35,342 nt of DNA. Source: Acidimicrobiia bacterium. Lineage in GTDB: Bacteria > Actinomycetota > Acidimicrobiia > IMCC26256 > JAMXLJ01. The notes beneath the pieces were generated by a model. It saw only the letters and a list, made by a program, of their open reading frames with translations, did no database searches and was not told the DNA's origin. How positions within the stretch are numbered: position 1 is the first letter of the stretch; the number at the start of each line of letters is the position of its first letter. Both the position numbers and the translations under genes were made by a program. The stretch is taken from contig JAMXLJ010000035.1 in the NCBI GenBank assembly GCA_024281095.1, positions 1-35,342 on the forward strand. The letters run 5' to 3'. Positions 80 to 27,379 of the stretch are shown piece by piece.

Positions 80-1477
80 ATGGCGCCGCCCCGATCGATC
101 CCGGAGCGCGACCCGGCTCGGCATCGACCCGACGGTCGTGGCGAGGGCGCCGGCGCCTCCGTCGTGCGCCGGGCTCCGTTCTCGGACAATCCGGAAGTGG
201 GCATCCGCGGCCAGCGCACGCGGCAGCGGATACTCGACGCCGCGCTCCGGGTCTTCGGCGACGAGGGGTACCACAGCGGAAGCATCGATCGGATCGCCAA
301 GGTCGCTGGGTGCTCGCGGGTCTCGTTCTACCAGTACTTCGCCAGCAAGGAGGACGTGTTCCGGGAGCTCGCCGAACAGCTCGCGCGCCAGGTGACCGCG
401 TCGACCGAGGCGTTGAGCCCGGTCACCGCGGACGGCGACGGCTGGGCGACCGTGCGGGCGTGGATGGATCGCTACGCGGAGATCTACGAACGCTACGAGC
501 CGGTGTTCCACGCATACGAGACCGACGAGGTGCTCGCGAAGATCGCGTGGCGCACGGGTGCGGACGTGGTCGGGAAGATCCACGCGCGCGTCGTGACGAC
601 GTCGGTCCCACCCCGTCAGCTCGACCCGGTGCTCGGGTTGTTCCTGGAGTGTCTGAACCACACGCTCGGGGTCGTGGCCGTCCTGCGATCCGTCGCACCT
701 GAGGCCTACCCGAGCGGGCGCGTCGAGACCGCCGTCACCGACGTGTTCCATCGCACGCTGTTCGGTGTTCGGTCGGACGTCAACGTGCACGAGGCGGCGC
801 ATACGCCCGCCCCCCCGGTGCCGTTCGGCGAGCCCATGCGGTCGATGCTCGAGCAGGGCGACGGGGCGCTCGAATCGAATGCCTCGGCCAACCATGCCCT
901 CGCCGCGCTGCTGGCGTCGGGCCGGGACGTGCTGGTCAGCCGCGGTTACCACAACACCCGCGTCGACGACCTCGTCGAGGCCGCGGGCGTGTCCCACGGC
1001 GTCTTCTACCGCTATTTCACGAACAAGAGCGACCTCGCACGCATCCTCACGACTCGTGCCGTGCGGGAAGTCGGAACGACGCTGCTCGAGATCCCGGACC
1101 TCATCGGAACCGACGCGCCGGCGGGCCGGACGCTGCTGCGGCGATGGCTGCGCCGCTACAACACGGCCCACGCCAACGAGGCGGCGTTGCTGCGCGTATG
1201 GCTCGACGGGGCGCTCCAAGATCCGTCGTTGCAGGGCGAGTCCGCTCCACCGCTGGACTGGGGCCGACGCCGAATGGCGCGTTACTTGGGCCGCCGCGGG
1301 TTCGGCGACGTCGACATGGACGCGGTGGTCATGGTTGCCCTCCTCGGAGTGTTCGGCGCGCGGCAACGGCCGCCGGCCGAGGTGGAGGCGGCCGCGCTCC
1401 TCATCGAGCGGGGCCTCCTCGGCCGCGAGCCGCATCGCGAAGTAGTCCCTCGCAAACGCGCGAGCGACGGACGATGA
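80..1477 (+). CDS. Two-headed TetR/AcrR-family transcriptional regulator
   Basis: This 465-aa protein is about twice the usual TetR length and carries two complete TetR N-terminal DNA-binding domains. Head 1 is near residues 47-95, with a recognition helix ending VSFYQYFASKEDVF; head 2 is near 274-322, ending GVFYRYFTNKSDLA. Each is followed by its own helical ligand/dimer domain of about 150 residues. The two heads are clearly diverged, so they are likely to prefer different half-sites. The first 40 residues are Pro/Arg-rich and probably disordered. ATG 80 lacks a ribosome binding site; a strong one serves the short frame at 50. A GTG at 164 is a less well supported alternative start. It precedes the acyl-CoA dehydrogenase-P450 operon by 22 bp, so co-transcription is likely. 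A putative operator lies just upstream, which suggests autoregulation. Family assignment is secure; the effector is unknown. Confidence 0.9.
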   Translation: MAPPRSIPERDPARHRPDGRGEGAGASVVRRAPFSDNPEVGIRGQRTRQRILDAALRVFGDEGYHSGSIDRIAKVAGCSRVSFYQYFASKEDVFRELAEQLARQVTASTEALSPVTADGDGWATVRAWMDRYAEIYERYEPVFHAYETDEVLAKIAWRTGADVVGKIHARVVTTSVPPRQLDPVLGLFLECLNHTLGVVAVLRSVAPEAYPSGRVETAVTDVFHRTLFGVRSDVNVHEAAHTPAPPVPFGEPMRSMLEQGDGALESNASANHALAALLASGRDVLVSRGYHNTRVDDLVEAAGVSHGVFYRYFTNKSDLARILTTRAVREVGTTLLEIPDLIGTDAPAGRTLLRRWLRRYNTAHANEAALLRVWLDGALQDPSLQGESAPPLDWGRRRMARYLGRRGFGDVDMDAVVMVALLGVFGARQRPPAEVEAAALLIERGLLGREPHREVVPRKRASDGR

Positions 1478-1499
1478 AGCACCCGGGTGCGCCGGCGAC

Positions 1500-2657
1500 G
1501 TGATGCCACCGCGCGACGCCGACTTCCGCGACGAGCTGCAGTCGTGGCTGGCGGAACATCCGCCGCCCGACATCGAGCTCGCGACGACGCGCGAAGAAGC
1601 GCAGCGGCTGCGCGAATGGCAGCGAACGTTGCACGGCGGACGCTGGATCGGGATCCACTGGCCGGTCCAGTACGGCGGCCGCGGCGCCTCGCCGGCCCAG
1701 GTCGCGATCTACAACGCGGAGCTCGCCCGCGCCGGCGCGCCGCCGGTTCTCGGGCGGGCCGGCGTCACGCTCGTCGGCCCGACGTTGATGACCCACGGCA
1801 CCGAGGAGCAACGCCTCCGGTGGATGCGGAGGATCCTCGCGGGCGACGACGTGTGGTGCCAGCTCTTCAGCGAGCCCGGGGCGGGCAGCGACCTCGCCGC
1901 GTTGTCGACCCGGGCCGACAAGCGTGGGGGCGTGTACCGCGTGAACGGTCAGAAGGTGTGGTCGTCGTACGCGACCTTCGCCGACCTGGGCATCGCGCTC
2001 GTGCGGACGAATCCCGACGCGCCACCGCACAAGGGGATCTCCATGCTGGCGATACCGATGGACGCCGAGGGCGTGGACGTGCGCCCACTGCGCCAGATCA
2101 CCGGTGAACGCGAGTTCAACGAGGTGTTCCTCGACGACGTCGAGGTGCCGGTCGACAACCTCATCGGCCCGGAGAACGACGGTTGGCGCGTCGCAAACAC
2201 GACGCTCGCGAACGAACGCGGCGCGGCGTTCATCTGGAGAGAGCAGGTCCAACTGGAGGCCGCCATCGAGCACCTCTGGAACACGTGCGCGGGAGATGGG
2301 CGCCTCGACGACCCGCTGGTTCGCGAGGGGCTCGCGCGCTCGCGGATCGCCGTCGAGATCTTCCGGCTCCACAACGCACGCACGCTGAGCCGCCTGTCGC
2401 GCGGTCACGACATCGGGCCCGAGTCGAGCCTCGTGAAATTGTTCTGGGCCGGCATGAGCCAGCGTCTCTTCGAAACCGCCACAGCCGTGTCGGGGCCGCG
2501 GGCAACGCTCGCCGCGGAAGACGAGAACACCGGCGACGGCAAATGGACGCGCGGACTGCTGTCGACACGCGCGAACTCGATCATGGGTGGTACCAGCGAG
2601 ATCCAGCGCACCATCCTTGCCGAGCGCGTGCTCGGCCTTCCCCGGGAGCCGAGATGA
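1500..2657 (+). CDS. Acyl-CoA dehydrogenase
   Basis: This 385-aa flavoprotein should oxidise an acyl-CoA to its 2,3-enoyl-CoA. The N-terminal helical domain is followed by the flavin/substrate signature WCQLFSEPGAGSDLA (119-133) and a C-terminal domain ending GGTSEIQRTILAERVLGLPR, the ending common in actinobacterial FadE proteins. The place of the medium-chain-type catalytic Glu (YEGT) is taken by Gly in MGGT (362-365). In the family this means either a Glu elsewhere or a partner subunit, as in the heterotetrameric steroid side-chain enzymes of mycobacteria; no second acyl-CoA dehydrogenase lies in this window. The start is GTG 1500 or the next codon, ATG 1503; neither has a clear ribosome binding site. 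Its stop overlaps the following P450 start (ATGA), which indicates translational coupling. The substrate is not deducible. Confidence 0.92.
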   Translation: MMPPRDADFRDELQSWLAEHPPPDIELATTREEAQRLREWQRTLHGGRWIGIHWPVQYGGRGASPAQVAIYNAELARAGAPPVLGRAGVTLVGPTLMTHGTEEQRLRWMRRILAGDDVWCQLFSEPGAGSDLAALSTRADKRGGVYRVNGQKVWSSYATFADLGIALVRTNPDAPPHKGISMLAIPMDAEGVDVRPLRQITGEREFNEVFLDDVEVPVDNLIGPENDGWRVANTTLANERGAAFIWREQVQLEAAIEHLWNTCAGDGRLDDPLVREGLARSRIAVEIFRLHNARTLSRLSRGHDIGPESSLVKLFWAGMSQRLFETATAVSGPRATLAAEDENTGDGKWTRGLLSTRANSIMGGTSEIQRTILAERVLGLPREPR

Positions 2658-3889
2658 TGCAGTCGACGGACGTCATCGATCCGAACGCGCTCGTCGACCC
2701 GGACCGCTACGCACGCGAGGGGTATCCGCACGAGGCGTGGACGCGCCTGCGCGCCGAAGCGCCCGTCGCGCGGCTCCATGCACACGGCTACGAACCGTTC
2801 TGGGGCATCACCAAGCACGCCGACGTCGTGGAGGTCTCGAAGCAACCGCTGCGCTTCTCGAACGCACAGGGGATCACGCTCGTGCGCACCAGTGCGCCGG
2901 TGATCGACCCGCCGGAGATGGTGGTCATGCTCGATCCGCCTCGGCACGGGCCCTTGCGCAGGGTGGTGATGCCCTGCTTCACGCCTCGTGCCGTCCGCGC
3001 GCAACGGGCGCACATCGAGCGGATCGCAATCGAGCTCCTCGACGCGGCGACGACCGGTGTCGGCGGCGAGCTCGACTTCGTGCAGATGATCGCGGCCCCG
3101 TTCCCGCTCGCGGTCATCGCATGGAGTCTCGGCGTTCCGCGCGACGACTGGGACCTGTTGTACCGCTGGACGAACGAGGTCATCGGGAAGGACGATCCGG
3201 AGTACCGCCTTCCCGGGGAACGGCCGGGGCAGACGTTCATGCGTGCGCGCGGCGAGTTGCACACATACTTCGAACAGATGATCGAAGACCGCATGAAGAA
3301 CCCGCAGGACGATCTGGTGAGCGAACTGGTCGGCGGCGAGATCGACGGCGCACCGCTCACTTACGAGCAGCTGGTGGCGTACTGCGAGCTCCTCGTCGAG
3401 GCGGGGAACGAGACGACACGCAACGCGATCAGCGGTGGCCTGCTCGCCTTCTGCGAGCACCCGGGCGAGTGGGCGAAGCTACGCGACCGTCCGGAGCTGC
3501 TTCCGGACGCGGTCGAGGAGATCCTGCGCTGGGTCAGCCCCATCAGCCACTTCACGCGCGTCGCAACCGAGGACTACCGGCTCCGCGGCACCGACATCCG
3601 CGCCGGCGAACGGCTGGCGCTGTATTACGCGTCGGCGAACCGTGACGAAGAGGTGTTCGACGATCCGTTCCGGTTCCGGGTCGACCGTCACCCCAACCAC
3701 CATCTCGCCTTCGGCGTCGGAGAGCACTTCTGCATGGGCGCGCACGTCGCGCGGGTCGAGATCGAGACGATGTTCCGTCATCTCCTCGCTCGCGTCGAGT
3801 CGTTCGAGGTCGCGGGCCCGGTGGAACGTCTCAGCTCCATCACGAACGGAAGCATCAAGCATCTTCCCGTCCGCTGGCGCACGGCGTAG
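2654..3889 (+). CDS. Cytochrome P450 (CYP125/CYP142-like group)
   Basis: A soluble bacterial P450 of 411 aa. The I-helix motif AGNETT (250-255), the K-helix ExxR (E289, R292) and the heme loop FGVGEHFCMG with Cys360 are all present. The I-helix context GNETTRNAIS, the YYASANRDEEVF segment and a C-terminus of the type NGSIKHLPVRW resemble the actinobacterial CYP124/125/142 group, which hydroxylates sterol side chains and branched lipids; that resemblance is from memory of the family. The start at ATG 2654 overlaps the acyl-CoA dehydrogenase stop by 4 nt and has GGGAG 6 nt upstream, so much longer upstream readings in this frame are discarded. It would need a ferredoxin and reductase, and none is encoded in the window. 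The context suggests it feeds a CoA-dependent pathway. Confidence 0.93.
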   Translation: MMQSTDVIDPNALVDPDRYAREGYPHEAWTRLRAEAPVARLHAHGYEPFWGITKHADVVEVSKQPLRFSNAQGITLVRTSAPVIDPPEMVVMLDPPRHGPLRRVVMPCFTPRAVRAQRAHIERIAIELLDAATTGVGGELDFVQMIAAPFPLAVIAWSLGVPRDDWDLLYRWTNEVIGKDDPEYRLPGERPGQTFMRARGELHTYFEQMIEDRMKNPQDDLVSELVGGEIDGAPLTYEQLVAYCELLVEAGNETTRNAISGGLLAFCEHPGEWAKLRDRPELLPDAVEEILRWVSPISHFTRVATEDYRLRGTDIRAGERLALYYASANRDEEVFDDPFRFRVDRHPNHHLAFGVGEHFCMGAHVARVEIETMFRHLLARVESFEVAGPVERLSSITNGSIKHLPVRWRTA

Positions 3890-4674: not shown

Positions 4675-6992
4675 CTGCCGCCCGCTACGTCGGCACACGC
4701 GTCGCACGCGTCGAGGACGCGCGGCTTCTGACCGGTCACGGCAGTTTCGTCGACGACATCGTGCTTCCCGGCATGCTCTACGCGTGCTTCGTACGGAGCC
4801 CGTTCGCCCGGGCCGACGTGCGGTCGATCGACGTGTCGGCCGCGCTCGTGGCGCCCGGGGTGCGCTTCGTGTTCACCGCGGCCGACCTCAATCCGGGCGT
4901 CAAGGAGCAATGGCACACGTCGGTCGGGCCCCAGAGCCCCGAGACGCCGCGCCCGCCACTTGCCGACGGCCACGTGCGATTCGTCGGCGACCCCGTGGCC
5001 CTCGTCGTCGCCGAGAGCCGCGCCCTGGCGGTCGACGCCGCCGAACTCGTCGACGTCGACTACGAACCCCTCCCCGCGGTCGTCGACTACACCACCGCCG
5101 AATACGCCGACGTACTCGTACACGAGAGCCACGGCTCGAACGTCGTCGGCGAGCTCGCCGGGCAGCCGGTCTCCGCAATGGAAGACGTGTTCGGCTCGGC
5201 GGCCCATGTGGTGAGCGAGACGATCCATCAGCACGCGTACGTACCGGCGCCGATGGAGGGGCGCGGCATGATCGTGGACCACGCCGGCCCGGCGGGCGAG
5301 CTCACGATTTACGCCGCGACGCAATCGCCGCACGAGGTGCGGATGTTCTGCGCGCGCCTGCTCGGCATCCCCGACCACCGCATCCGGGTCGTGATGCGCG
5401 ACACCGGCGGCGGGTTCGGTCAGAAGGTGGTGGTGCAGCGGGACGAGATGTGCCTGATGCTCGCGGCGCCGAAGGTCGGTGCACCGCTGAAATGGGTGGA
5501 GGACCGCCGGGAGAACCTGCTGTGCGCGGGCAAGTCGCGCCAGGAGCACGGCGACGTGCGGATGGCCTTCGCAGCCGACGGCGCGATCGAAGCCGCGTAC
5601 ATCGACTTCGTCCAGGACTGCGGCGCGTACCCGAGCCCATGGCCGGTGTTCACCGCGGCCGCGGTCGGCATGATCTTCCCGGGGCCGTATCGCGTGCCAC
5701 GCGGCGGCTTCACCGCGAAGGCGATCTACACGAACACCGTCGGCCGGGCCGCATACCGGGGGCCGTGGCAGTTCGAGTCGTTGGCCCGCGAAGTGATGCT
5801 CGACATCGCCGCGCGCCGGATCGGCATCGACCCGATGGAGCTGCGGCGACGCAACCTGCTGCGGCGCGACGACCTGCCGTACCGGAACCCCAACGGCATG
5901 TCGTACGACAGCATCTCGCCGCTCGAGACGTTCGAGCAGGCGCTCGCGATCCTCGACTACGACAAGTTCCGGGTCGAGCAGGCGCAGGCGCGTCAGTTGG
6001 GGCGCCACCTCGGCGTCGGCGTCGCGAACTACGTCGAGCCGTCGACGCCCGGCTACGGGGTCTACGGCACCGAGGCCGCGACCATCCGCATCGAGCCGTC
6101 CGGAAAGGTCAACGTCTACGTCGCGGGTGGATCGACGGGCAACAGCCTCGAGACGACGGTCGTGCAGCTCACCGCCGACGCACTGGGTGCCCGCCTCGAC
6201 GACGTACACACGATCCAGGGCGACACGGCCGTGACAGGCTTCGGCGCGGGCACGGGAGGCAGCCGGAGCGCGTCGATGACGGCCGGCGCGGTGCGGGAGA
6301 CCGCAACAATCCTGCGCGAGCGCGTTCGCGCGATCGCCGCGCACCGGCTGGAAGCGGCCATCGACGACATCGAGCTGGACGACAGTCGCGCGCACGTGCG
6401 TGGCACACCCTCCGTGGGCATCTCACTCGCGGACATCGCGGCCCTCGCCTACTTCCAGCCCAAGGCGCTGCCGACCGGCGTTCCGGCCGGCCTCGAGGCG
6501 AGCGCCCGGTACAGCGCGGAGGCGCCGTCCATCTGGGTCAACGCCACGCACGTCTGCACGTGCGAAGTCGACATCGAGACGGGACGGGTCACGCTCCTGC
6601 GCTACATCGTGAGTGAGGACTGCGGCCCGATGATCAACCCGAACGTCGTCGAGGGCCAGATCGCCGGCGGTGTCGTGCAGGGCATCGGCGGCGTGCTGTT
6701 CGAGCATCTGGCGTACGACGACGACGGCAACCCTCTGGCGACGACATTCGCGGACTATCTCGTCCCGAGCGCGGCGGAGGTGCCCCCGATCGAGTACGGA
6801 CACGTCGAGACGCCGAGCCCCGGGCCGGGGGGCTACAAGGGAGTCGGCGAGGGCGGCGCGATCGGCGCGCCGCCGGCCGTCGTCAACGCGGTCGCCGACG
6901 CCCTCTCGCCGTTCGGCGTGACGTTGACGCGGCTTCCGCTGAGCCCTGATCGCATCATGTCGCTGCTCCAATCGCGAGAGGAACCGAAGTGA
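4671..6992 (+). CDS. Molybdenum hydroxylase large subunit (xanthine dehydrogenase/CoxL family), stand-alone
   Basis: This 773-aa protein has the usual length of the catalytic molybdopterin subunit of the xanthine dehydrogenase/CO dehydrogenase family, which hydroxylates substrates with water-derived oxygen. It opens with the typical YVGTRVARVEDARLLTGHG. The molybdopterin contact GGGFGQK is at 246-252, and GVGEGG near the C-terminus places the catalytic Glu at 727. The active-site loop reads AYRGPW (361-366), which is neither the AYRCSFR loop of form I CO dehydrogenase nor AYRGAGR of form II, so CO oxidation is unlikely; an aldehyde or heterocycle is more plausible. The FAD (medium) and 2Fe-2S (small) subunits normally beside it are absent: SDR and P450 genes flank it with 4-nt overlaps on both sides. 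The start is GTG 4671. Family assignment is secure; substrate and electron acceptor are unknown. Confidence 0.92.
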   Translation: MTAARYVGTRVARVEDARLLTGHGSFVDDIVLPGMLYACFVRSPFARADVRSIDVSAALVAPGVRFVFTAADLNPGVKEQWHTSVGPQSPETPRPPLADGHVRFVGDPVALVVAESRALAVDAAELVDVDYEPLPAVVDYTTAEYADVLVHESHGSNVVGELAGQPVSAMEDVFGSAAHVVSETIHQHAYVPAPMEGRGMIVDHAGPAGELTIYAATQSPHEVRMFCARLLGIPDHRIRVVMRDTGGGFGQKVVVQRDEMCLMLAAPKVGAPLKWVEDRRENLLCAGKSRQEHGDVRMAFAADGAIEAAYIDFVQDCGAYPSPWPVFTAAAVGMIFPGPYRVPRGGFTAKAIYTNTVGRAAYRGPWQFESLAREVMLDIAARRIGIDPMELRRRNLLRRDDLPYRNPNGMSYDSISPLETFEQALAILDYDKFRVEQAQARQLGRHLGVGVANYVEPSTPGYGVYGTEAATIRIEPSGKVNVYVAGGSTGNSLETTVVQLTADALGARLDDVHTIQGDTAVTGFGAGTGGSRSASMTAGAVRETATILRERVRAIAAHRLEAAIDDIELDDSRAHVRGTPSVGISLADIAALAYFQPKALPTGVPAGLEASARYSAEAPSIWVNATHVCTCEVDIETGRVTLLRYIVSEDCGPMINPNVVEGQIAGGVVQGIGGVLFEHLAYDDDGNPLATTFADYLVPSAAEVPPIEYGHVETPSPGPGGYKGVGEGGAIGAPPAVVNAVADALSPFGVTLTRLPLSPDRIMSLLQSREEPK

Positions 6993-8188
6993 CGACAACC
7001 GACACGACCGACGTCTACTTCGACCCGTACGACGCCGAAATCGACGCCGATCCGTACCCCGTGTACAAGCGCCTGCGCGACGAAGCGCCGCTCTACTACA
7101 ACGAGCCGTACGACTTCTTCGCGGTCAGTCGCTTCGAGGACGTGGAACGTGGCTTGCGTGACGCGCGCACGTACATCTCGGGCCGGGGCGGGATCCTCGA
7201 GATCATCAAGGCGAACATCGAGCTGCCACCCGGCACCCTCATCTTCGAGGACCCGCCCGTGCACACCGTGCACAGAAGCCTGTTGTCACGCGTCTTCACT
7301 CCCCGGCGCGTGGCCGCGCTCGAGCCGAAGATCCGCGAGTTCTGCGCGCGGAGTCTCGACCCGCTCGTGGGCGCGGGCGGCTTCGACTTCATCGCCGACC
7401 TCGGCGCGCAGATGCCCATGCGCGTGATCGGGATGCTGTTCGGCATCCCCGAGGAGGACCAGGAGGCGATCCGCAAAGGAGCCGACGCGAAGCTCCGCAC
7501 GAACGCCGGCGAACCGATGCAGGTGTCGGAGAACACGACCTTCGGCAGCGAGATGTTCGCCGAGTACATCGACTGGCGCGTCGAGCACCCGTCCGACGAT
7601 CTCATGACCGAGCTGCTGCACACGGAGTTCGAGGACGAGACCGGCACGACGCGCCGCCTCACCCGCGACGAGGCCCTGCTCTACACGACCGTCGTCGCCG
7701 GCGCCGGCAACGAGACGACGACCCGACTCATCGGTTGGGCGGGCAAGGTGCTGGCCGAGCACCCCGATCAGCGGCGGGACCTCGTCGCCGACCGCTCGCT
7801 GATCCCGAACGCGATCGAGGAGCTGCTCCGTTACGAGCCGCCGGGACCGCATATCGGCCGTTACGTGCCGAACGACGTCGACCTGTACGGCCGGACGGTC
7901 CCCGCGGGCAGCGCAATGCTCTTCGTCGTCGGAGCGGCGAACCGCGACGAGCGCCGCTATCCCGACCCGGATCGGTTCGACGTCCACCGCGACATCGGCC
8001 AGCACCTCACGTTCGGGTATGGCGTCCACTACTGCCTCGGCGCCGCACTGGCGCGTCTCGAAGGCCGCGTGGCGCTCGACGAGGTGCTGAACCGTTTCCC
8101 CGAATGGGACGTCGACATGACGCGTGCGAAGCTCGCTCCGACGTCGACCGTGCGCGGCTGGGAGACGCTTCCCGCCGTCGTCCCGTGA
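6989..8188 (+). CDS. Cytochrome P450
   Basis: A 399-aa class I bacterial P450. It has the I-helix AGNETT (239-244), ExxR at E278/R281, and the heme loop TFGYGVHYCLG with ligand Cys349. The start codon GTG 6989 overlaps the Mo hydroxylase stop (GTGA), and AGAGG lies 8 nt upstream. It is the last gene of the five-gene operon beginning with the acyl-CoA dehydrogenase and ends 4 bp before the convergent SnoaL-like gene. It differs widely from the first P450 of the operon (no RRVVMPCFTP-type segment; CAR-type C-terminus absent), so this is not a recent tandem duplication. The substrate is unknown. Confidence 0.93.
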   Translation: MTTTDTTDVYFDPYDAEIDADPYPVYKRLRDEAPLYYNEPYDFFAVSRFEDVERGLRDARTYISGRGGILEIIKANIELPPGTLIFEDPPVHTVHRSLLSRVFTPRRVAALEPKIREFCARSLDPLVGAGGFDFIADLGAQMPMRVIGMLFGIPEEDQEAIRKGADAKLRTNAGEPMQVSENTTFGSEMFAEYIDWRVEHPSDDLMTELLHTEFEDETGTTRRLTRDEALLYTTVVAGAGNETTTRLIGWAGKVLAEHPDQRRDLVADRSLIPNAIEELLRYEPPGPHIGRYVPNDVDLYGRTVPAGSAMLFVVGAANRDERRYPDPDRFDVHRDIGQHLTFGYGVHYCLGAALARLEGRVALDEVLNRFPEWDVDMTRAKLAPTSTVRGWETLPAVVP

Positions 8189-8192
8189 GCGG

Positions 8193-8606
8193 CTACGCGT
8201 TGGACGGTTCCTCGAAGTCGACGCGCAGCCGGGTGAGGGTCGACGACTTGATGCGCCATTCGCCGTCGACCTTCTCGTAGGTCTCGTGGTAGTGACCGAA
8301 GCCCTCCATCTGCGCGCCGTTGGGCCACCGGAGGCGATCCTCCATGGCCCAGATGCCGGTGGCCGTCGTCGGGGACGTCACCTCGATCTCGGGCATGTGA
8401 CCGTGGTGCACGGTGACGACGTCGCCGATGACGCCGCGCAGGAAGACCATGAACTCGTCGGCGCCGTGGACGACGCCGCCACCGGACGACGTCGTGTCCA
8501 TGGTGACGTCGTCTGCGAAGACCCGGCGCATGCCGTCCCAGTCCTTGGTGTCCATCGTCCGGAAGTAGCGGGCCTTCAACTGCTTGATCGCTTCGATATC
8601 GTCCAC
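8193..8606 (-). CDS. SnoaL-like (NTF2-fold) protein
   Basis: A 137-aa single-domain protein with the pattern of the SnoaL/NTF2 cone fold: an N-terminal helix (IEAIKQLKARYFRTMDTKDW), the segment MRRVFADDVTMDTTS, then paired beta strands containing VTVHHGHMPEIEVT and MEGFGHYHETYEKVDGEWRI. Proteins of this fold act as small-molecule isomerases, dehydratases, cyclases or binding proteins, and several histidines could serve. The start is GTG 8606, where the conserved domain begins; longer upstream readings run through the divergent LLM gene. It converges on the P450 (4-bp gap) and is divergent from the LLM oxidoreductase. The exact reaction is unknown. Confidence 0.82.
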   Translation of the reverse strand: MDDIEAIKQLKARYFRTMDTKDWDGMRRVFADDVTMDTTSSGGGVVHGADEFMVFLRGVIGDVVTVHHGHMPEIEVTSPTTATGIWAMEDRLRWPNGAQMEGFGHYHETYEKVDGEWRIKSSTLTRLRVDFEEPSNA

Positions 8607-8617
8607 GGCCTCACGAT

Positions 8618-8623
8618 AGGAGG
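8618..8623 (+). promoter_or_regulatory. Ribosome binding site that fixes the LLM oxidoreductase start
   Basis: AGGAGG abuts an ATG at 8624 with no spacing but stands 6 nt before the ATG at 8630. Normal spacing therefore favours 8630 (protein start MSVLFGLRF). The site lies in the 23-bp gap between two divergent start codons. Confidence 0.7.
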
Positions 8624-8629
8624 ATGCCG

Positions 8630-9607
8630 ATGAGCGTGCTGTTCGGGCTCCGCTTCGACTTCCGCAACCCCGACATCGCGGGCACCGCGATGGCCGACCG
8701 CTACGCGGCCGCACTCGACATGGCCGAGTGGGCGGACGAGCGGGGTTGCGTCAGCATCGCGGTGTCGGAGCATCACGGATCGGCCGACGGGTACCTGCCG
8801 AGCCCGTTGCCGATGGTCGCGGCGATGGCGGCGCGCACGACGAACGTCCGCCTGATGGTTGCGGCGCTCATCGCACCCTTCTACGACCCAATCCGTCTCG
8901 CCGAGGACCTCGTCGTGCTGGACAACCTCAGCAAGGGCCGCGTCGACCTCGTCGTCGCCGGCGGCTACGTGCACGAGGAGTTCGAGATGTACGGCGTGCC
9001 GATGCGCGAGCGCGCCGCGCGCGTGGGCGAGGTCGTGGCCACGTTGAAGGCCGCATTGAGCGGTGAACCATTCGAGTACCGGGGACGCACGATCCGCGTG
9101 ACGCCCGAGCCGTTCCGACCCGGCGGCCCGGCGATCCTGCTCGGTGGCAGCAGCGAACCGGCGGCCCGTCGCGCCGCGCGCATCGCCGACGGCTTCATCC
9201 CCTCGGTGCCGGAAGTGTGGGACTTCTATCGCGACGAGGTGCAGCGGCTGGGCCGGCCCGATCCCGGCCCTTCCCCGATCGGGTCCAACCGCACGGTCGC
9301 GCTCGCGGAGGATGCCGAATCGGGGTGGCAGCGGATGGCACCCTTCTTCCTGCACGAGACGAACGCGTACGGCGCATGGCAGGCACAGGACGACATCGCG
9401 TCGCCGTACCGCACGGTCGAGACGGCGGACGACCTCCGAAAGTCGGGCCAGTACGCGGTGCTCACACCCGACGAGCTCGTGGACGAGCTGCGCGCCGCAC
9501 CATTTCCATTCGCGATGTTCCATCCCATGTGCGGCGGGATGCCGGTGGATCTCGCGTGGTCGAGCCTGCGCCTCTTCGAGCAGCGCGTCGTGCCCGCGTT
9601 CGCGTAA
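8630..9607 (+). CDS. LLM-class flavin-dependent oxidoreductase
   Basis: A 325-aa luciferase-like monooxygenase family protein (TIM barrel using FMN or F420). Family hallmarks are the N-terminal FGLRFDFRNP, SIAVSEHHGSADGYLPSP, the RLMVAALIAPFYDPIRLAED strand-helix, and the GGPAILLGGSSEPAARRAAR region before the C-terminal barrel strands. Such enzymes oxygenate or dehydrogenate organic substrates with reduced flavin or F420; the cofactor cannot be fixed from sequence alone. Spacing to AGGAGG sets the start at 8630 rather than 8624. The gene is monocistronic between a divergent SnoaL-like gene and a convergent SDR, within the catabolic cluster. Confidence 0.9.
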   Translation: MSVLFGLRFDFRNPDIAGTAMADRYAAALDMAEWADERGCVSIAVSEHHGSADGYLPSPLPMVAAMAARTTNVRLMVAALIAPFYDPIRLAEDLVVLDNLSKGRVDLVVAGGYVHEEFEMYGVPMRERAARVGEVVATLKAALSGEPFEYRGRTIRVTPEPFRPGGPAILLGGSSEPAARRAARIADGFIPSVPEVWDFYRDEVQRLGRPDPGPSPIGSNRTVALAEDAESGWQRMAPFFLHETNAYGAWQAQDDIASPYRTVETADDLRKSGQYAVLTPDELVDELRAAPFPFAMFHPMCGGMPVDLAWSSLRLFEQRVVPAFA

Positions 9608-9634
9608 CCGAAGTCGCCCCTCCACTCCTCAGGC

Positions 9635-9643
9635 GGGGGGGGG
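9635..9643 (+). repeat. Run of nine G residues between convergent genes
   Basis: The 39-bp gap between the convergent LLM oxidoreductase and SDR stops contains nine consecutive G. It is outside both reading frames and is a plausible slippage or sequencing-error spot. No terminator with a T tract is visible in the gap. Confidence 0.6.
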
Positions 9644-9646
9644 CGG

Positions 9647-10471
9647 TCAGGTTCGGCCGCTGAAGTCCACCTGGCCGGTCGCGAGTGCCGCGCTGAAGCC
9701 GCCGTCGATGTCGAGGTTGATGCCGTTGACGTACCCGGCCGCCGGTGATCCGAAGAACGCGAGCACCATTGCAACCTCGCGTGGCGCGACGGCGCGACCG
9801 TTCATCTCGCGAATGTTCCAGTCGATGATCTTGTCGCTCGTGGTCCGGCGGAAGTCGGGCAGCAGCGGCGTGTCGATCGGCCCCGGGCACACGGTGTTCG
9901 TACGCACGCCGCGCCGCATCGTGGGGCGTGACGAGCGCAGCGTGTACACCTCCACCACCTCCTTGGAGAAGTTGTAGGGCCCTTGTTCGAGCGATTCGTG
10001 GTTGTCGTCGAACCACTGCAACGACGCGCCCCATCCCTCGCCGAGGCCGATGTCGAGCAGCGCGTTGATCTGCTTCACACGTTTGCGCCAGAGGTTCCCG
10101 GCAAGTGACGCGGTGTTGACGATCGCGGCACCTTCGGGCATCCGGTCGAGGAGCCCCTCCGACAGCGTGCGCAGCGCGAGGTAGTTGACCGCCAGAACCG
10201 TGTGCGGCGGTTGCGTGTCGGCCACGCCCGCATTGTTGAAGAGCGCGTGCACGGGGCCGTCGGTCCGGGCGACGGCGTCGCGTACGGCGGCCTCGTCGGA
10301 CAGATCGGCTTGCAGGAACTCGTCGTGCTTCCCGCCCGGTTCCTCGCGGTCGATCACGGTGACGTGAGCCGCGTCGAGCTCGCTCAGGACCTCGAGGAGC
10401 GCGGCGCCGACGCCTCGTGCCCCGCCGGTGACGACGACACGGCGGTCGTGGTAGCTGAACGGATTGTTCAT
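9647..10471 (-). CDS. SDR oxidoreductase of the 3-alpha-hydroxysteroid/coniferyl alcohol dehydrogenase type
   Basis: A 274-aa SDR with cofactor motif TGGARGVG (15-22), NNAG (79-82), Ser122 and YNFSK (Tyr166, Lys170). The stretch between catalytic Ser and Tyr is 44 residues instead of about 13; a long insertion here is known from the Comamonas 3-alpha-hydroxysteroid dehydrogenase/carbonyl reductase group and its coniferyl-alcohol dehydrogenase relatives. Asp41 after the second strand favours NAD(H). ATG 10471 is preceded by GGGAGG at good spacing, which rules out longer upstream readings. It overlaps the upstream monooxygenase stop by 4 nt and is the last gene of the five-gene minus-strand operon. 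Oxidation of a cyclic alcohol, or reduction of the ketone, is the likely chemistry. Confidence 0.9.
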   Translation of the reverse strand: MNNPFSYHDRRVVVTGGARGVGAALLEVLSELDAAHVTVIDREEPGGKHDEFLQADLSDEAAVRDAVARTDGPVHALFNNAGVADTQPPHTVLAVNYLALRTLSEGLLDRMPEGAAIVNTASLAGNLWRKRVKQINALLDIGLGEGWGASLQWFDDNHESLEQGPYNFSKEVVEVYTLRSSRPTMRRGVRTNTVCPGPIDTPLLPDFRRTTSDKIIDWNIREMNGRAVAPREVAMVLAFFGSPAAGYVNGINLDIDGGFSAALATGQVDFSGRT

Positions 10472-14507: not shown

Positions 14508-15791
14508 GTGAGCGAAAGCGACCTCGACACTCGCGGCTTCGACGAGATCGACTTCTTCCGGGCCCGGCCGCTGTACCAGGACCCGTACCCGTACTACGAG
14601 TACCTGCGGTCGCACGGCCCGGTGTGGCGCGAGCCGCATCGGGGTGTCGTCATGGTGACGGGCTACGAGGAAGCTATGGCGGTGCTCACGGACACGACCA
14701 GGTTCTCGAACTGCAACACGGTGAGCGGTGTCTTCGCCAGCTTCCCCGTGCCGCTCGAGGGCGACGACGTGAGCGACATCATCGAGCAGTACCGCGACAC
14801 GCTTCCGTTCAGCGACCAGCTCCCCTCGTTCGACCCGCCGAAGCACACCGCGCACCGCGCCCTGCTCATGCGTCTGATCACGCCCAAGCGCCTCAAGGAG
14901 AACGAGGAGTTCATGTGGCGCCTCGCGGACCGGCAGATCGACGAGTTCCTCGAGCGCGGTGCGTGCGAGTTCGTCCACGACTACGCGAACGCGTTCACCT
15001 TGCTCGTGATCGCGGACCTGCTCGGCGTTCCCGAGGAGGATCACGCGACGTTCCGGGAGCAGCTCCAGGGCGAGGATCGTCCGGTGAACTCGGCGATGGC
15101 GCACAAGCCGCTGGAGTTCCTCTACGACCGTTTCACGGAGTACATCGAGGACCGCCGACGGGACCCCCGTCCCGATGTCATGACGCAACTGGCCACCGCG
15201 ACGTTCCCCGACGGGACGCTGCCCGAGGTTCACGACGTCATGCTGATCGCGTCGAACCTCTTCGCGGCAGGCCAGGAGACGACGGCGCGGATGCTCTCGA
15301 CGGCCTTTCGCCTGATCGGCGAGCGACCGGAGCTCCAGCAGGCGCTGCGCGACGACCGCGACCTGATCCCGCGACTCGTCGAGGAGGTCGTACGGCTCGA
15401 GAGCCCGATCCAAGGGAACTTCCGTCTGTCGCGGGTACCCACCACGGTCGGCGGCGTGGAGCTTCCCGCGGGGACGACCCTGATGATCCTCATCGGCGCC
15501 GCGAACCGGGACCCGCGCCAGTTCGACAGCCCGGCGCAGCTCCGTCTCGATCGCCCGAACGGCCGCCAGCACATCGGGTTCGGGTTCGGCATCCACGCCT
15601 GCGCAGGGGCGCCCCTCGCTCGCGCGGAGGGCCGCGTCAGCATCGAGCGGCTCCTCGACCGGATGACCGACATCACCGTGTCCGAGGCGCGGCACGGTCC
15701 GCCGGGCGGGCGGCGATACTTCTACACACCGATCTACATGCTGCGCGGCCTCGAGAACCTGCATCTGGATTTCACGCCCGTCACCGCGTAG
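14508..15791 (+). CDS. Cytochrome P450
   Basis: A 427-aa soluble P450 with I-helix AGQETT (254-259), ExxR at E293/R296, and the heme loop FGFGIHACAG with Cys365. ACAGAPLARAEGR after the Cys ligand is typical of actinobacterial class I enzymes. GTG 14508 is used as the start, with GGAG 5 nt upstream; the N-terminal FFRARPLYQDPYPYYEYLR confirms that the domain begins there. It is transcribed away from the five-gene operon, from a promoter holding two operator-like repeats, and is followed 32 bp later by an amidohydrolase with which it probably forms an operon. The substrate and redox partner are unknown. Confidence 0.93.
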   Translation: MSESDLDTRGFDEIDFFRARPLYQDPYPYYEYLRSHGPVWREPHRGVVMVTGYEEAMAVLTDTTRFSNCNTVSGVFASFPVPLEGDDVSDIIEQYRDTLPFSDQLPSFDPPKHTAHRALLMRLITPKRLKENEEFMWRLADRQIDEFLERGACEFVHDYANAFTLLVIADLLGVPEEDHATFREQLQGEDRPVNSAMAHKPLEFLYDRFTEYIEDRRRDPRPDVMTQLATATFPDGTLPEVHDVMLIASNLFAAGQETTARMLSTAFRLIGERPELQQALRDDRDLIPRLVEEVVRLESPIQGNFRLSRVPTTVGGVELPAGTTLMILIGAANRDPRQFDSPAQLRLDRPNGRQHIGFGFGIHACAGAPLARAEGRVSIERLLDRMTDITVSEARHGPPGGRRYFYTPIYMLRGLENLHLDFTPVTA

Positions 15792-23500: not shown

Positions 23501-24730
23501 CTACCTCCAGGCCAGCGTCAGATCCTTCACGTGCCGCAGGCCCGGTGGGTATTCGAGCTCCTCGTGGCCGGGCTTGAGCCAGTAGTCGGGGATACGGCGA
23601 TGCCACTCACGCAACGTGATGCGCAGCTCGCGACGGGCGAGGTGCGAGCCGAGGCAGCGATGCACGCCGCCGCCGAAGGCGATGTGGCGGTTGACCTCGC
23701 GGTCGAAGCGGACGTCGAACGAGTCGGGCATGTCGCTCGGGTCCACGTTCGCGGCGCCGTAGCTCACCATCACGGCCGTGCCCGCCTTCACGGCCCTGCC
23801 GTTCGGCAGGCGCGTGTCGCAGGTCGCGACGCGCGGCACGCCCGACGGCACCGGTGACTCCCAACGCAGTAGCTCCTCCACCGCGTTGGGGATGCAGGAC
23901 GGATCGTCCACGAGCTGGCGACGGTGCTCCGGATGTGTCGCGAGGAACGCGTACATGCACGTGAGCGAGTCGCTCACGGTGTCGAGCCCGGCGATGAGGA
24001 AGAGGAAGCAGATGTCGAGGATGTCGTCGCGTGTCAACACATCGCCGTCGATCTCGGCCGCGAGGAAGCGCGAGACGACGTCGTCGGTGGGCTGGCTGCG
24101 CCGGTCGTCGACAAGTGCGCCGAAGTAGTCGTAGATCTCCTGGCCGGTGCGCTGCATCACCGCGGCACGCGCGTCGGGGTCGAGCATCGCGTTCGGGTCG
24201 TGCTTCTCCGGATGGAGGATGCCGTCGCGCAGCCGCAGGAACATTTCGAGCTCGTCTTCCGGCAGACCCATCAGCCCGAGGAAGACCGAGCTCGGGAACA
24301 GCTCGGCGAACTCCTCGGTGAAGTTGCACTCGCCCCGGTCGACGAACCCGTCGATCAGCGCGTTGGCGCGCCGCGTGATGTCCTCCTCCTGCTCGTCCAT
24401 GCGCTTCGGTGCGAACAGCGGGTCGAGAAGCTTGCGGTACTTCGAGTGTTGCGGCGGGTCGACGTTGAGCGGGATGAGCGGCCGGACGTTGCCGAGGTTC
24501 AGGTCGACGCGCGAGGAGAACAGCTCGTGGTGGCGCAGCACGTGCTCGGTCGTGGCGCGGTCGAAGCTCAGGGCGAAGCCCTCCATCGGCTCGAGCATTC
24601 CGCCCGTTTCGATCGCCGCGCGGTAGCGCTCCTGTGGTGCCTTCATGTCGAGCAGGACGCTGAACATGTCCTGCGACGCGTCGGGCAGTGCGGCGACGTC
24701 CCGCGAGGTGCTGTCGGCGGTATCGGTCAT
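23501..24730 (-). CDS. Cytochrome P450
   Basis: A 409-aa P450 with I-helix AGLDTV (247-252), ExxR at E286/R289, and the heme loop FGGGVHRCLG with Cys359. The I-helix acid is Asp250 next to Thr251, whereas the three other P450s here have Glu-Thr. FGGGVHRCLGSHLARREL and a proximal end RIPDYWLKPG are common in actinobacterial class I P450s that act on terpenes. ATG 24730 is preceded by GGGGAGAGG. It is followed by a SnoaL-like gene in the same operon. Substrate and redox partner are unknown. Confidence 0.93.
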   Translation of the reverse strand: MTDTADSTSRDVAALPDASQDMFSVLLDMKAPQERYRAAIETGGMLEPMEGFALSFDRATTEHVLRHHELFSSRVDLNLGNVRPLIPLNVDPPQHSKYRKLLDPLFAPKRMDEQEEDITRRANALIDGFVDRGECNFTEEFAELFPSSVFLGLMGLPEDELEMFLRLRDGILHPEKHDPNAMLDPDARAAVMQRTGQEIYDYFGALVDDRRSQPTDDVVSRFLAAEIDGDVLTRDDILDICFLFLIAGLDTVSDSLTCMYAFLATHPEHRRQLVDDPSCIPNAVEELLRWESPVPSGVPRVATCDTRLPNGRAVKAGTAVMVSYGAANVDPSDMPDSFDVRFDREVNRHIAFGGGVHRCLGSHLARRELRITLREWHRRIPDYWLKPGHEELEYPPGLRHVKDLTLAWR

Positions 24731-24906: not shown

Positions 24907-24962
24907 GCCTCGTCAGAACGATGTCAGCGCACAGGCGCGCGGGACTGGAGAAAGAGAGACCC

Positions 24963-25205
24963 TTGAGCTACGACGAACTTCCCGAGCCCGAACCGAAGCC
25001 AGAGGACGAGAAGCTCGCGATCCAGTTGCGCCATCTCGCCGACAACGCCGTGCTGAAAGCGCGGCCGCAGGGCGACGAGCGTTGCGACAACTGTCGGTAC
25101 TACCTCGAGCCGTCGAGGGAGATCTCGTACTGCTGGCACCCGAAGTTGCGCATCCTCGTCGGCGACCAGTGGTGGTGCCAGTGGTGGGAGGCAAACCCCG
25201 AGTAG
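24963..25205 (+). CDS. Small four-Cys protein with HiPIP-like spacing
   Basis: An 80-aa protein with an acidic, proline-rich N-terminus (ELPEPEPKPEDEK), a helix and a Cys/Trp-rich C-terminus. The cysteines are 41, 44, 57 and 72, giving C-x2-C-x12-C-x14-C, with WWCQWW at the last one. High-potential iron-sulfur proteins have C-x2-C-x(n)-C-x13-(G/W)WC and a KL-hydrophobic stretch before the last Cys, comparable to HPKLRILVGDQWWC here. A zinc-binding fold is the alternative. There is no signal peptide, unlike exported HiPIPs. The start is taken as TTG 24963 with GGAG/GAGAG upstream; ATG 24921 in the same frame would add 14 residues but has no ribosome binding site. Cluster binding and electron transfer are inferred. 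Confidence 0.7.
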   Translation: MSYDELPEPEPKPEDEKLAIQLRHLADNAVLKARPQGDERCDNCRYYLEPSREISYCWHPKLRILVGDQWWCQWWEANPE

Positions 25206-27106: not shown

Positions 27107-27379
27107 ATGGAGATCTTCCCCGACGAGATGCTTCCGTTCGGAAGCCTGAATGGTGGGCAATGCCCGGGGTGCGGCGAAGTGCCGCTCGGTCGCGTGGCCG
27201 GGTGTGACGCACCGCATTTCCTGTGCCGCTCGTGCGGCCGTTGTTGGAGCTTCGCGACCGGCACGTGGCGGGCAGTCGACCCGATCGGGTGCCCGGGGTG
27301 CGCGAGCCACGACCGCGTGGAATGCATCGAGCAGCTCGCTGCAGAGTTCCCACGCTTCGGACCGTCGATGCTCGACTGA
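27107..27379 (+). CDS. Small Cys-rich zinc-ribbon protein
   Basis: A 90-aa protein with nine cysteines: a CPGCG knuckle at 19-23, Cys33, C-x2-C at 40/43 with Cys46 next to them, CPGC at 62-65, and Cys73. Two or more Zn-binding ribbons, or one ribbon and a second metal site, are likely. There is no signal peptide. AGGAGG (27092-27097) precedes ATG 27107 by 9 nt, so the longer upstream reading is discarded. No homologue with a known role comes to mind. It may bind nucleic acid or protein, or carry a metal. Confidence 0.75.
   Translation: MEIFPDEMLPFGSLNGGQCPGCGEVPLGRVAGCDAPHFLCRSCGRCWSFATGTWRAVDPIGCPGCASHDRVECIEQLAAEFPRFGPSMLD

What the first reader, a model, noticed from the sequence alone, without database searches (positions are those of the whole stretch)
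24963..25205. Cytoplasmic 80-aa protein with HiPIP-like cysteine spacing and a Trp cage
C-x2-C-x12-C-x14-C with HPKLRILVGDQWWCQWW at the end resembles the cluster-binding half of high-potential iron-sulfur proteins, but there is no export signal and the N-terminus is an acidic proline-rich tail. It could be an undescribed small electron carrier in a P450-rich region, or a zinc protein. It starts, probably at TTG, opposite a P450.
Basis: partly seen in the sequence, partly recalled or inferred. Interest (0 to 1): 0.55.

Follow-up and report, generated by a model that had tools for sequence, protein, structure and literature searches.

The report
Leaderless HiPIP-like iron-sulfur protein family
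An 80-residue bacterial protein carries the four-cysteine signature of electron-carrying high-potential iron-sulfur proteins but no recognisable export signal, and belongs to a strongly conserved, apparently undescribed family found in several classes of bacteria.

Summary
The gene is real: its TTG start is kept in a congener, dN/dS is about 0.13, and relatives occur in five sampled classes. It encodes a leaderless homologue of high-potential iron-sulfur proteins (HiPIPs). Alone, the window protein misses Pfam's HIPIP cut-off (18.9 against 22 bits). A family profile with divergent members finds HiPIPs 1pih/2hip as the best PDB hits (E about 1e-5), and profile-profile comparison with 13 HiPIPs gives P = 4e-7, above 400 of 400 permuted controls, half with cysteines fixed. 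Two divergent members pass the Pfam cut-off. Differences from HiPIPs: no leader, Trp-Trp-Cys in place of Gly-Trp-Cys, an invariant C-x-His, a conserved acidic/proline N-terminus. Best reading: a cytosolic [4Fe-4S] HiPIP-fold one-electron carrier or relay, partner unknown. The P450 link is weak: 5 of 72 immediate neighbours in the first neighbour set (above chance), but not in the window's congener and not found in 45 loci from other classes. One relative sits in a flavin reductase-P450-HiPIP run, one is fused to DUF2231, one is a tandem. Structure prediction failed (pLDDT 54 and 46); cluster, fold and potential are untested.

The parts
24963..25205 (+). gene of the leaderless HiPIP-like protein, 80 aa, TTG start
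   Evidence: start and dN/dS; relatives
24947..24955 (+). possible ribosome-binding site, GGAG within GGAGAAAGA, 12 bases before the TTG
   Evidence: sequence; G001 also has GGAG upstream of its TTG; inferred
25083..25094 (+). C41-x2-C44, first two putative cluster ligands
   Evidence: invariant in alignments A1, A3 and A6
25131..25139 (+). C57-W58-H59: third putative ligand and invariant His
   Evidence: C57 and H59 invariant in A6; HiPIP 1pih/2hip has C-T-H-P here
25170..25187 (+). W70-W71-C72-Q-W-W: fourth putative ligand among aromatics; WWC replaces the HiPIP GWC
   Evidence: W70 invariant in A1 and A3, at least 90% in A6; HiPIP motif from PMC11138216
24963..25013 (+). conserved acidic/proline N-terminus (consensus MSDYxIPxPEPKEIDE), no leader seen
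23501..24730 (-). divergent neighbour, cytochrome P450 (PF00067); not beside the gene in congener G001

Best explanation
The protein is a cytosolic member of the HiPIP fold group: its four cysteines hold one [4Fe-4S] cluster buried among conserved tryptophans and tyrosines, and it acts as a small one-electron carrier, or an electron relay, for a cytosolic or inner-membrane oxidoreductase. Shown: the gene is real, conserved and leaderless, and its cluster half is homologous to HiPIPs. Inferred: the fold, the cluster, its oxidation states and the electron transfer. Unknown: the partner, which probably differs between lineages or is encoded elsewhere, since the neighbourhood is not conserved.
For: Single sequence: HIPIP is the only Pfam hit, E 0.0018; top PDB hits are HiPIPs 1pih E 0.033 and 2hip E 0.055, then a galectin at 0.85 and PioC at 1.1. 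Broad profile A6: 1pih E 9.7e-6, 2hip 1.1e-5, 8z82 0.0044, 1hlq 0.07, 3h31 0.1, PioC 0.16; the first unrelated chain follows at 0.19. hhalign of A6 with 13 HiPIPs: probability 92.8, P 4.1e-7, score 38.3; 200 full column permutations reach at most 18.6 and 200 with Cys columns fixed at most 31.3. An earlier family alignment without the Chloroflexi-class members gave probability 67.5, score 28.5, against maxima of 18.6 and 25.1 in 60 permutations each. Pfam HIPIP hits 13 of 16 A6 members at E <= 1; two pass the 22-bit cut-off: G944 26.4 and G818 module 1 24.5. The motif C-x2-C-x12-C-x12-WWC fits the published C-x2-C-x8-16-C-x10-13-G-[WY]-C except for Gly. No hydrophobic leader before CxxC in 79 members: highest 12-residue hydropathy 1.43 against 1.86-2.20 in 4 Tat-type HiPIP precursors. 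Fusion to the start of membrane domain DUF2231 in G837 and an in-frame tandem in G818 fit a portable module. HiPIP-fold [4Fe-4S] subunits exist in glycyl-radical enzymes, which are cytosolic (recalled).
Against: The window protein misses Pfam's cut-off. Members L014, L067 and L077 give no HIPIP hit at E <= 0.05. The first profile, A1, found only 8z82 at E 0.073 and then unrelated Egl nine chains; A6 was made later with divergent members, and its Chloroflexi-class rows, which are the nearest to HiPIPs, may pull it that way. No conserved redox partner gene. Published HiPIP potentials (+100 to +400 mV) are odd for a reducing cytosol. The homologous stretch is only about 45 residues.
Confidence: 0.62

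Rival explanations
1. Accessory subunit: the HiPIP-fold cluster is structural or regulatory and the protein binds an enzyme, as the small subunits of benzylsuccinate synthase, alkylsuccinate synthase and 4-hydroxyphenylacetate decarboxylase do, rather than shuttling electrons.
For: HiPIP-fold subunits of similar size exist there; MasC appears at E 6 in one PDB search and the 4-hydroxyphenylacetate decarboxylase small subunit model NF033716 hits 1 of 16 members at E 0.015. The conserved N-terminus with PEPKEIDE could be a docking segment (inference).
Against: No glycyl-radical enzyme family among the 25 families shown for 72 and for 60 neighbours (families hit only once may lie beyond the 25). 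No neighbour conserved across classes. P450, flavin monooxygenase and acyl-CoA dehydrogenase neighbours suggest oxygen-using hosts (inference).
Confidence: 0.2
2. Electron donor to cytochromes P450 (or a link in a flavin reductase-P450 chain), standing in for a ferredoxin.
For: P450 is the commonest family among 72 immediate neighbours, 5 of 72; 4 of 26 genomes against 0.32 expected, P about 3e-4, or 3 of 25 without the window, P about 4e-3, at one gene per kb. G173 has a single P450 gene and it is the neighbour. G020: flavin reductase, P450, HiPIP-like gene and the next gene lie head to tail with gaps of 14 and 13 bp and a 4-bp overlap.
Against: Congener G001 has an amidohydrolase and a flavin monooxygenase beside the gene instead. 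Five P450 queries find no P450 in 45 loci from other classes. Except for L004/L045 (79%), the adjacent P450s share only 27-37% identity. HiPIP-like potentials would be too high to reduce P450s (recalled).
Confidence: 0.1
3. Zinc protein: the four cysteines (with His59) bind zinc and the protein has a structural or binding role.
For: Four Cys plus an invariant His; no metal data; structure prediction inconclusive.
Against: Zinc ribbons and rubredoxins use two CxxC knuckles (recalled); here the last two Cys are single and 14 residues apart. Cysteine-fixed permutations show that the HiPIP match is more than cysteine spacing.
Confidence: 0.08

Closest known systems
High-potential iron-sulfur proteins (Pfam PF01355), nearest PDB 1pih/2hip (recalled as Halorhodospira halophila HiPIP)
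   Same: C-x2-C-x12-C-x14-C spacing within the HiPIP range, Trp before the last Cys, aromatic after it, CxHP after the third Cys; homologous by profile
   Different: No leader seen; WWC instead of GWC; conserved acidic/proline N-terminal arm; hosts not known as phototrophs (inferred); window protein under the Pfam cut-off
HiPIP-fold small subunits of glycyl-radical enzymes (BSS beta/gamma, MASS beta/gamma, HPAD gamma)
   Same: Small, C-x2-C-xn-C-xn-C, [4Fe-4S], HiPIP-like fold (PMC12358834 and PMC12590467, passages); not exported (recalled)
   Different: Only marginal sequence matches; no glycyl-radical enzyme among the neighbour families shown
PioC (PDB 6xyv), small HiPIP
   Same: Weak sequence match, E 0.16 with profile A6
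   Different: PioC is periplasmic in an iron-oxidation chain (PMC10654088, passages)
DUF2231 (PF09990) membrane proteins
   Same: One Chloroflexi-class relative, cut off by the contig end, runs into the first 36 positions of this domain
   Different: The window protein has no such domain

Membership tests
HiPIP (PF01355) | Score above the curated Pfam cut-off (22 bits) | tested here: not met
   Window protein 18.9 bits. Two divergent relatives pass (26.4 and 24.5 bits).
HiPIP (PF01355) | Homology at profile level | tested here: met
   PDB profile search with A6 E 9.7e-6 to 1pih; hhalign P 4.1e-7 against permuted controls; the shallower A1 reached only E 0.073
HiPIP (PF01355) | C-x2-C-x8-16-C-x10-13-G-[WY]-C (PMC11138216) | tested here: not met
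   Spacings and W-C met; Gly replaced by Trp70, invariant in A1 and A3 and at least 90% in A6
HiPIP (PF01355) | Tat-dependent export to the periplasm | tested here: not met
   No hydrophobic leader in 79 members with the starts chosen; 4 HiPIP precursors used as yardstick have one. A HiPIP as Tat substrate: PMC4361764, passages. Location itself was not measured.
HiPIP (PF01355) | HiPIP fold | tested here: inconclusive
HiPIP (PF01355) | [4Fe-4S]2+/3+ couple at +100 to +400 mV | not testable with these tools
   Needs purified protein
Glycyl-radical enzyme small subunit | Encoded with a glycyl-radical enzyme | tested here: inconclusive
   None among the 25 of 85 and 25 of 60 neighbour families shown; families hit once may be hidden
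P450 redox partner | Encoded beside a P450 across the family | tested here: not met
   5 of 72 immediate neighbours in the first set; no P450 found in 45 loci of other classes
P450 redox partner | Transfers electrons to a P450 | not testable with these tools
   Needs a reconstituted assay
Zinc ribbon / rubredoxin | Two CxxC knuckles (recalled) | tested here: not met
   Only one CxxC

The most novel reading that the evidence does not exclude
A widespread cytosolic branch of the HiPIP family in oxygen-using, non-photosynthetic bacteria, using its buried cluster as a soluble carrier inside the cell, with lineage-specific partners that include P450 chains (flavin reductase-P450-HiPIP run in G020) and DUF2231 membrane proteins.
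Probability: 0.25. Interest if true: 0.72.

Novelty: new variant of a known kind. Interest (0 to 1): 0.5.

Why it matters
HiPIPs are known as exported carriers (recalled; one as a Tat substrate in PMC4361764, passages), and the only HiPIP folds without export that I met in the passages read are bound subunits of glycyl-radical enzymes. A conserved, free-standing, leaderless branch in Acidimicrobiia, in the class of a Kofleriaceae MAG and in other groups would put a HiPIP-type cluster in the cytosol of (inferred) oxygen-using bacteria and raise a direct question: does it work at high or low potential, and for which enzyme? An 80-residue protein with a clear prediction (brown, 4Fe-4S) is easy to test.

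Tried and rejected
The fold is not claimed from these.

P450 partnership as the general function: rejected after congener G001 and the other classes showed no P450 beside the gene.

Conserved operon: blast clusters of neighbours at 36 loci gave no shared context; the largest clusters covered 8, 7 and 6 loci at mixed distances. Among 31 loci, 29 from the class of G654 and 2 from the class of G502, there is local synteny: a nucleotide-sugar epimerase cluster within four genes upstream in 15, an unnamed protein of about 260 aa downstream in 15, an AAA-type protein in 14. It does not extend to the window's class. Gene calls in these analyses come from a codon-bias script of mine, not from a standard gene finder. 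Of 61 neighbour references, 60 were scanned (a 39-aa one beside L138 was left out); of 23 neighbours, 7 were scanned.

Viral and plasmid copies: none found. Rfam and tRNA scans of the window: nothing. Literature (15 papers listed, none opened from that list except PMC10654088; no paper; 598 papers, 12 listed, off topic) told nothing.

The regular expressions that collected the 79 members and the loci demand the Cys pattern, C-x-H and a Trp near the last Cys, so the 79/79 counts for those residues are partly by construction; A1, A3 and A6 are the fairer basis. The second module of G818 was not caught by it and has His in place of Trp70. L126 was missed (it has CFH) and is absent from the neighbour counts. 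For the leader test the start was taken 15-55 residues before CxxC, so a leader further upstream would be missed; one member, L142, matches the crude pattern RR-x-[FLI], inside its charged N-terminal stretch; only 4 of 7 plasmid HiPIPs served as yardstick. Class labels of the loci are mine. L141 and L157 were left out of the tree, whose forks are poorly resolved.

Full report
What is there. Window 24963-25205 (+) encodes 80 residues from a TTG start, with C41-x2-C44-x12-C57-x14-C72 and a Trp-rich C-terminus. The search finds one copy in the genome. The congener G001 encodes a 92% identical protein with TTG at the same codon; dS is 0.35 and dN 0.046.

Who has it. tblastn-confirmed relatives: 16 loci in the named genome collection, one of them (L017) with a broken frame; titles include Acidimicrobiia, Acidimicrobiaceae, a Kofleriaceae MAG, a Deltaproteobacteria MAG and a Chloroflexi MAG. 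In whole genomes, each a draw from its group: 27 of 296 of the window's class, one of them weak; 8 of 396 from the phylum, 7 of these in the window's class; 30 of 144 of the class of the Kofleriaceae MAG; 3 of 66 of the class of G502; 4 of 245 of the Chloroflexi MAG's class, one with stops in frame; 9 of 148 of the class of the Deltaproteobacteria MAG. No relative was found in viral contigs or plasmids. The window protein and that of the Kofleriaceae MAG are 65% identical. I name the window's class Acidimicrobiia from the record titles of near relatives; the tool does not state it. In the tree the window and G001 are sisters with support 100/99; deeper forks are poorly resolved.

What it is. 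Alone, the protein hits only HIPIP in Pfam (18.9 bits, cut-off 22, E 0.0018) and nothing in NCBIfam. The shallow profile A1 was weak in the PDB (8z82, a HiPIP, at E 0.073, then unrelated Egl nine chains). A later profile that includes divergent members (A6) puts HiPIPs 1pih and 2hip first in the whole PDB at E 9.7e-6 and 1.1e-5, then 8z82 at 0.0044, 1hlq, 3h31 and PioC at 0.16, ahead of the first unrelated chain at 0.19. Profile-profile alignment of A6 with 13 HiPIPs gives probability 92.8, P 4.1e-7 and score 38.3; the best of 200 column permutations scores 18.6, and the best of 200 with the cysteine columns held in place 31.3. An earlier family alignment without Chloroflexi-class members scored 28.5 against maxima of 18.6 and 25.1 in 60 permutations each. 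So the resemblance is more than cysteine spacing and does not hang on those members alone. Two divergent members pass Pfam's cut-off, while L014, L067 and L077 have no HIPIP hit at E <= 0.05. In 296 genomes drawn from the window's class the HIPIP model finds nothing above its cut-off, so that model misses this family there.

How it differs. The published HiPIP motif is C-x2-C-x8-16-C-x10-13-G-[WY]-C (PMC11138216, passage). The window protein fits except that Gly is Trp, invariantly so in A1 and A3 and at 90% or more in A6. His59, two after the third Cys, is invariant in A6, and 1pih/2hip has C-T-H-P there. The N-terminus is an acidic, proline-rich arm with no leader: the highest 12-residue hydropathy before CxxC is 1.43 in 79 members, against 1.86-2.20 in four Tat-type HiPIP precursors (starts chosen by a rule, see Tried and rejected).

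Surroundings. Of 72 immediate neighbours at 37 non-duplicate loci, P450 is the commonest family with 5; by position these are the window, L004, L045 (G173), L056 (G114) and L067 (G020). L004 and L045 are close kin (P450s 79% identical). With the P450 counts (G173's two pieces counted as one gene) and one gene per kb I expect 0.32 adjacent genomes of 26 and see 4; without the window's genome, 0.31 and 3. In G173 the one P450 found is this neighbour. In G020 the order flavin reductase, P450, HiPIP-like gene, further gene is head to tail with gaps of 14 and 13 bp and a 4-bp overlap. Against this, G001 has an amidohydrolase and a flavin monooxygenase beside the gene, and five P450 queries find no P450 in 45 loci of 3-13 kb from other classes. 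Other neighbours include thiolase and ChsH2-type proteins (4 each of 72), an FAD enzyme of the glycerophosphate-oxidase type, an acyl-CoA dehydrogenase and, in the class of G654, nucleotide-sugar genes. So no general partner is encoded next door.

Fusions. G818 carries two modules in one frame. G837 carries the module followed by the first 36 positions of DUF2231, a predicted membrane domain (E 5.1e-8), before the contig ends. Both fit a portable redox module; neither proves it.

Mechanism. I think most likely that four cysteines hold a [4Fe-4S] cluster among Trp and Tyr side chains and that the protein moves single electrons in the cytosol, free or as a relay (confidence 0.62). HiPIP-fold [4Fe-4S] subunits are known in glycyl-radical enzymes (PMC12358834 and PMC12590467, passages read), which are cytosolic (recalled); so the fold works without export, and a bound, non-shuttling subunit is a fair rival (0.2). 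Whether the couple is the HiPIP-type 2+/3+ or a lower one cannot be told from sequence.

Known or new. It is homologous to HiPIPs but misses the curated cut-off, the Gly of the motif and the export signal, so I do not file it as a classical HiPIP; it is a new variant. Literature, in the open-licence library only: no paper holds high-potential iron-sulfur protein with cytochrome P450 and redox partner or high-potential iron-sulfur with Acidimicrobi*. Two papers hold HiPIP with Myxococc*: passages of PMC11138216 do not describe it, PMC10853474 was seen in the listing only. Of the two papers, passages of PMC10654088 do not describe it, PMC8859910 was seen in the listing only. Of the two, passages of PMC4361764 were read, PMC4159696 was seen in the listing only. 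A broader search for cytosolic or leaderless HiPIPs was uninformative.

Noticed in passing
window 27107-27379 (+): A 90-aa frame with several Cys pairs (CPGC, CRSCGRC, CPGC); only a weak zinc-ribbon resemblance in Pfam (E 0.012).
   Followed up: partly
window 2654-3889, 6989-8188, 14508-15791 (+) and 23501-24730 (-): Four P450 genes in 35 kb (gene ends), with a molybdenum hydroxylase large subunit, a luciferase-like monooxygenase, a flavin monooxygenase and an epoxide hydrolase: looks like a catabolic oxidation region.
   Followed up: partly
L141 (G818:C314), about 1463-1927, minus strand: Two HiPIP-like modules in one frame.
   Followed up: partly
L157 (G837:C103), 7336-7585: HiPIP-like module running into the start of DUF2231; the contig ends inside the gene.
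   Followed up: partly
L067 (G020:C1), 7452-10168: Flavin reductase, P450, divergent HiPIP-like gene and a further gene in one tight same-strand run.
   Followed up: partly
L114 2327-5153 and equivalents: An unnamed protein of about 260 aa (15 of 31 loci) and an AAA-type protein of about 683 aa (14 of 31) follow the HiPIP-like gene, mostly in the Kofleriaceae MAG's class; some of the 260-aa gene calls may be mis-started.
   Followed up: no
L017 397-573: Chloroflexi relative with an in-frame stop before the cluster half; possibly a decayed gene or a sequencing error.
   Followed up: no
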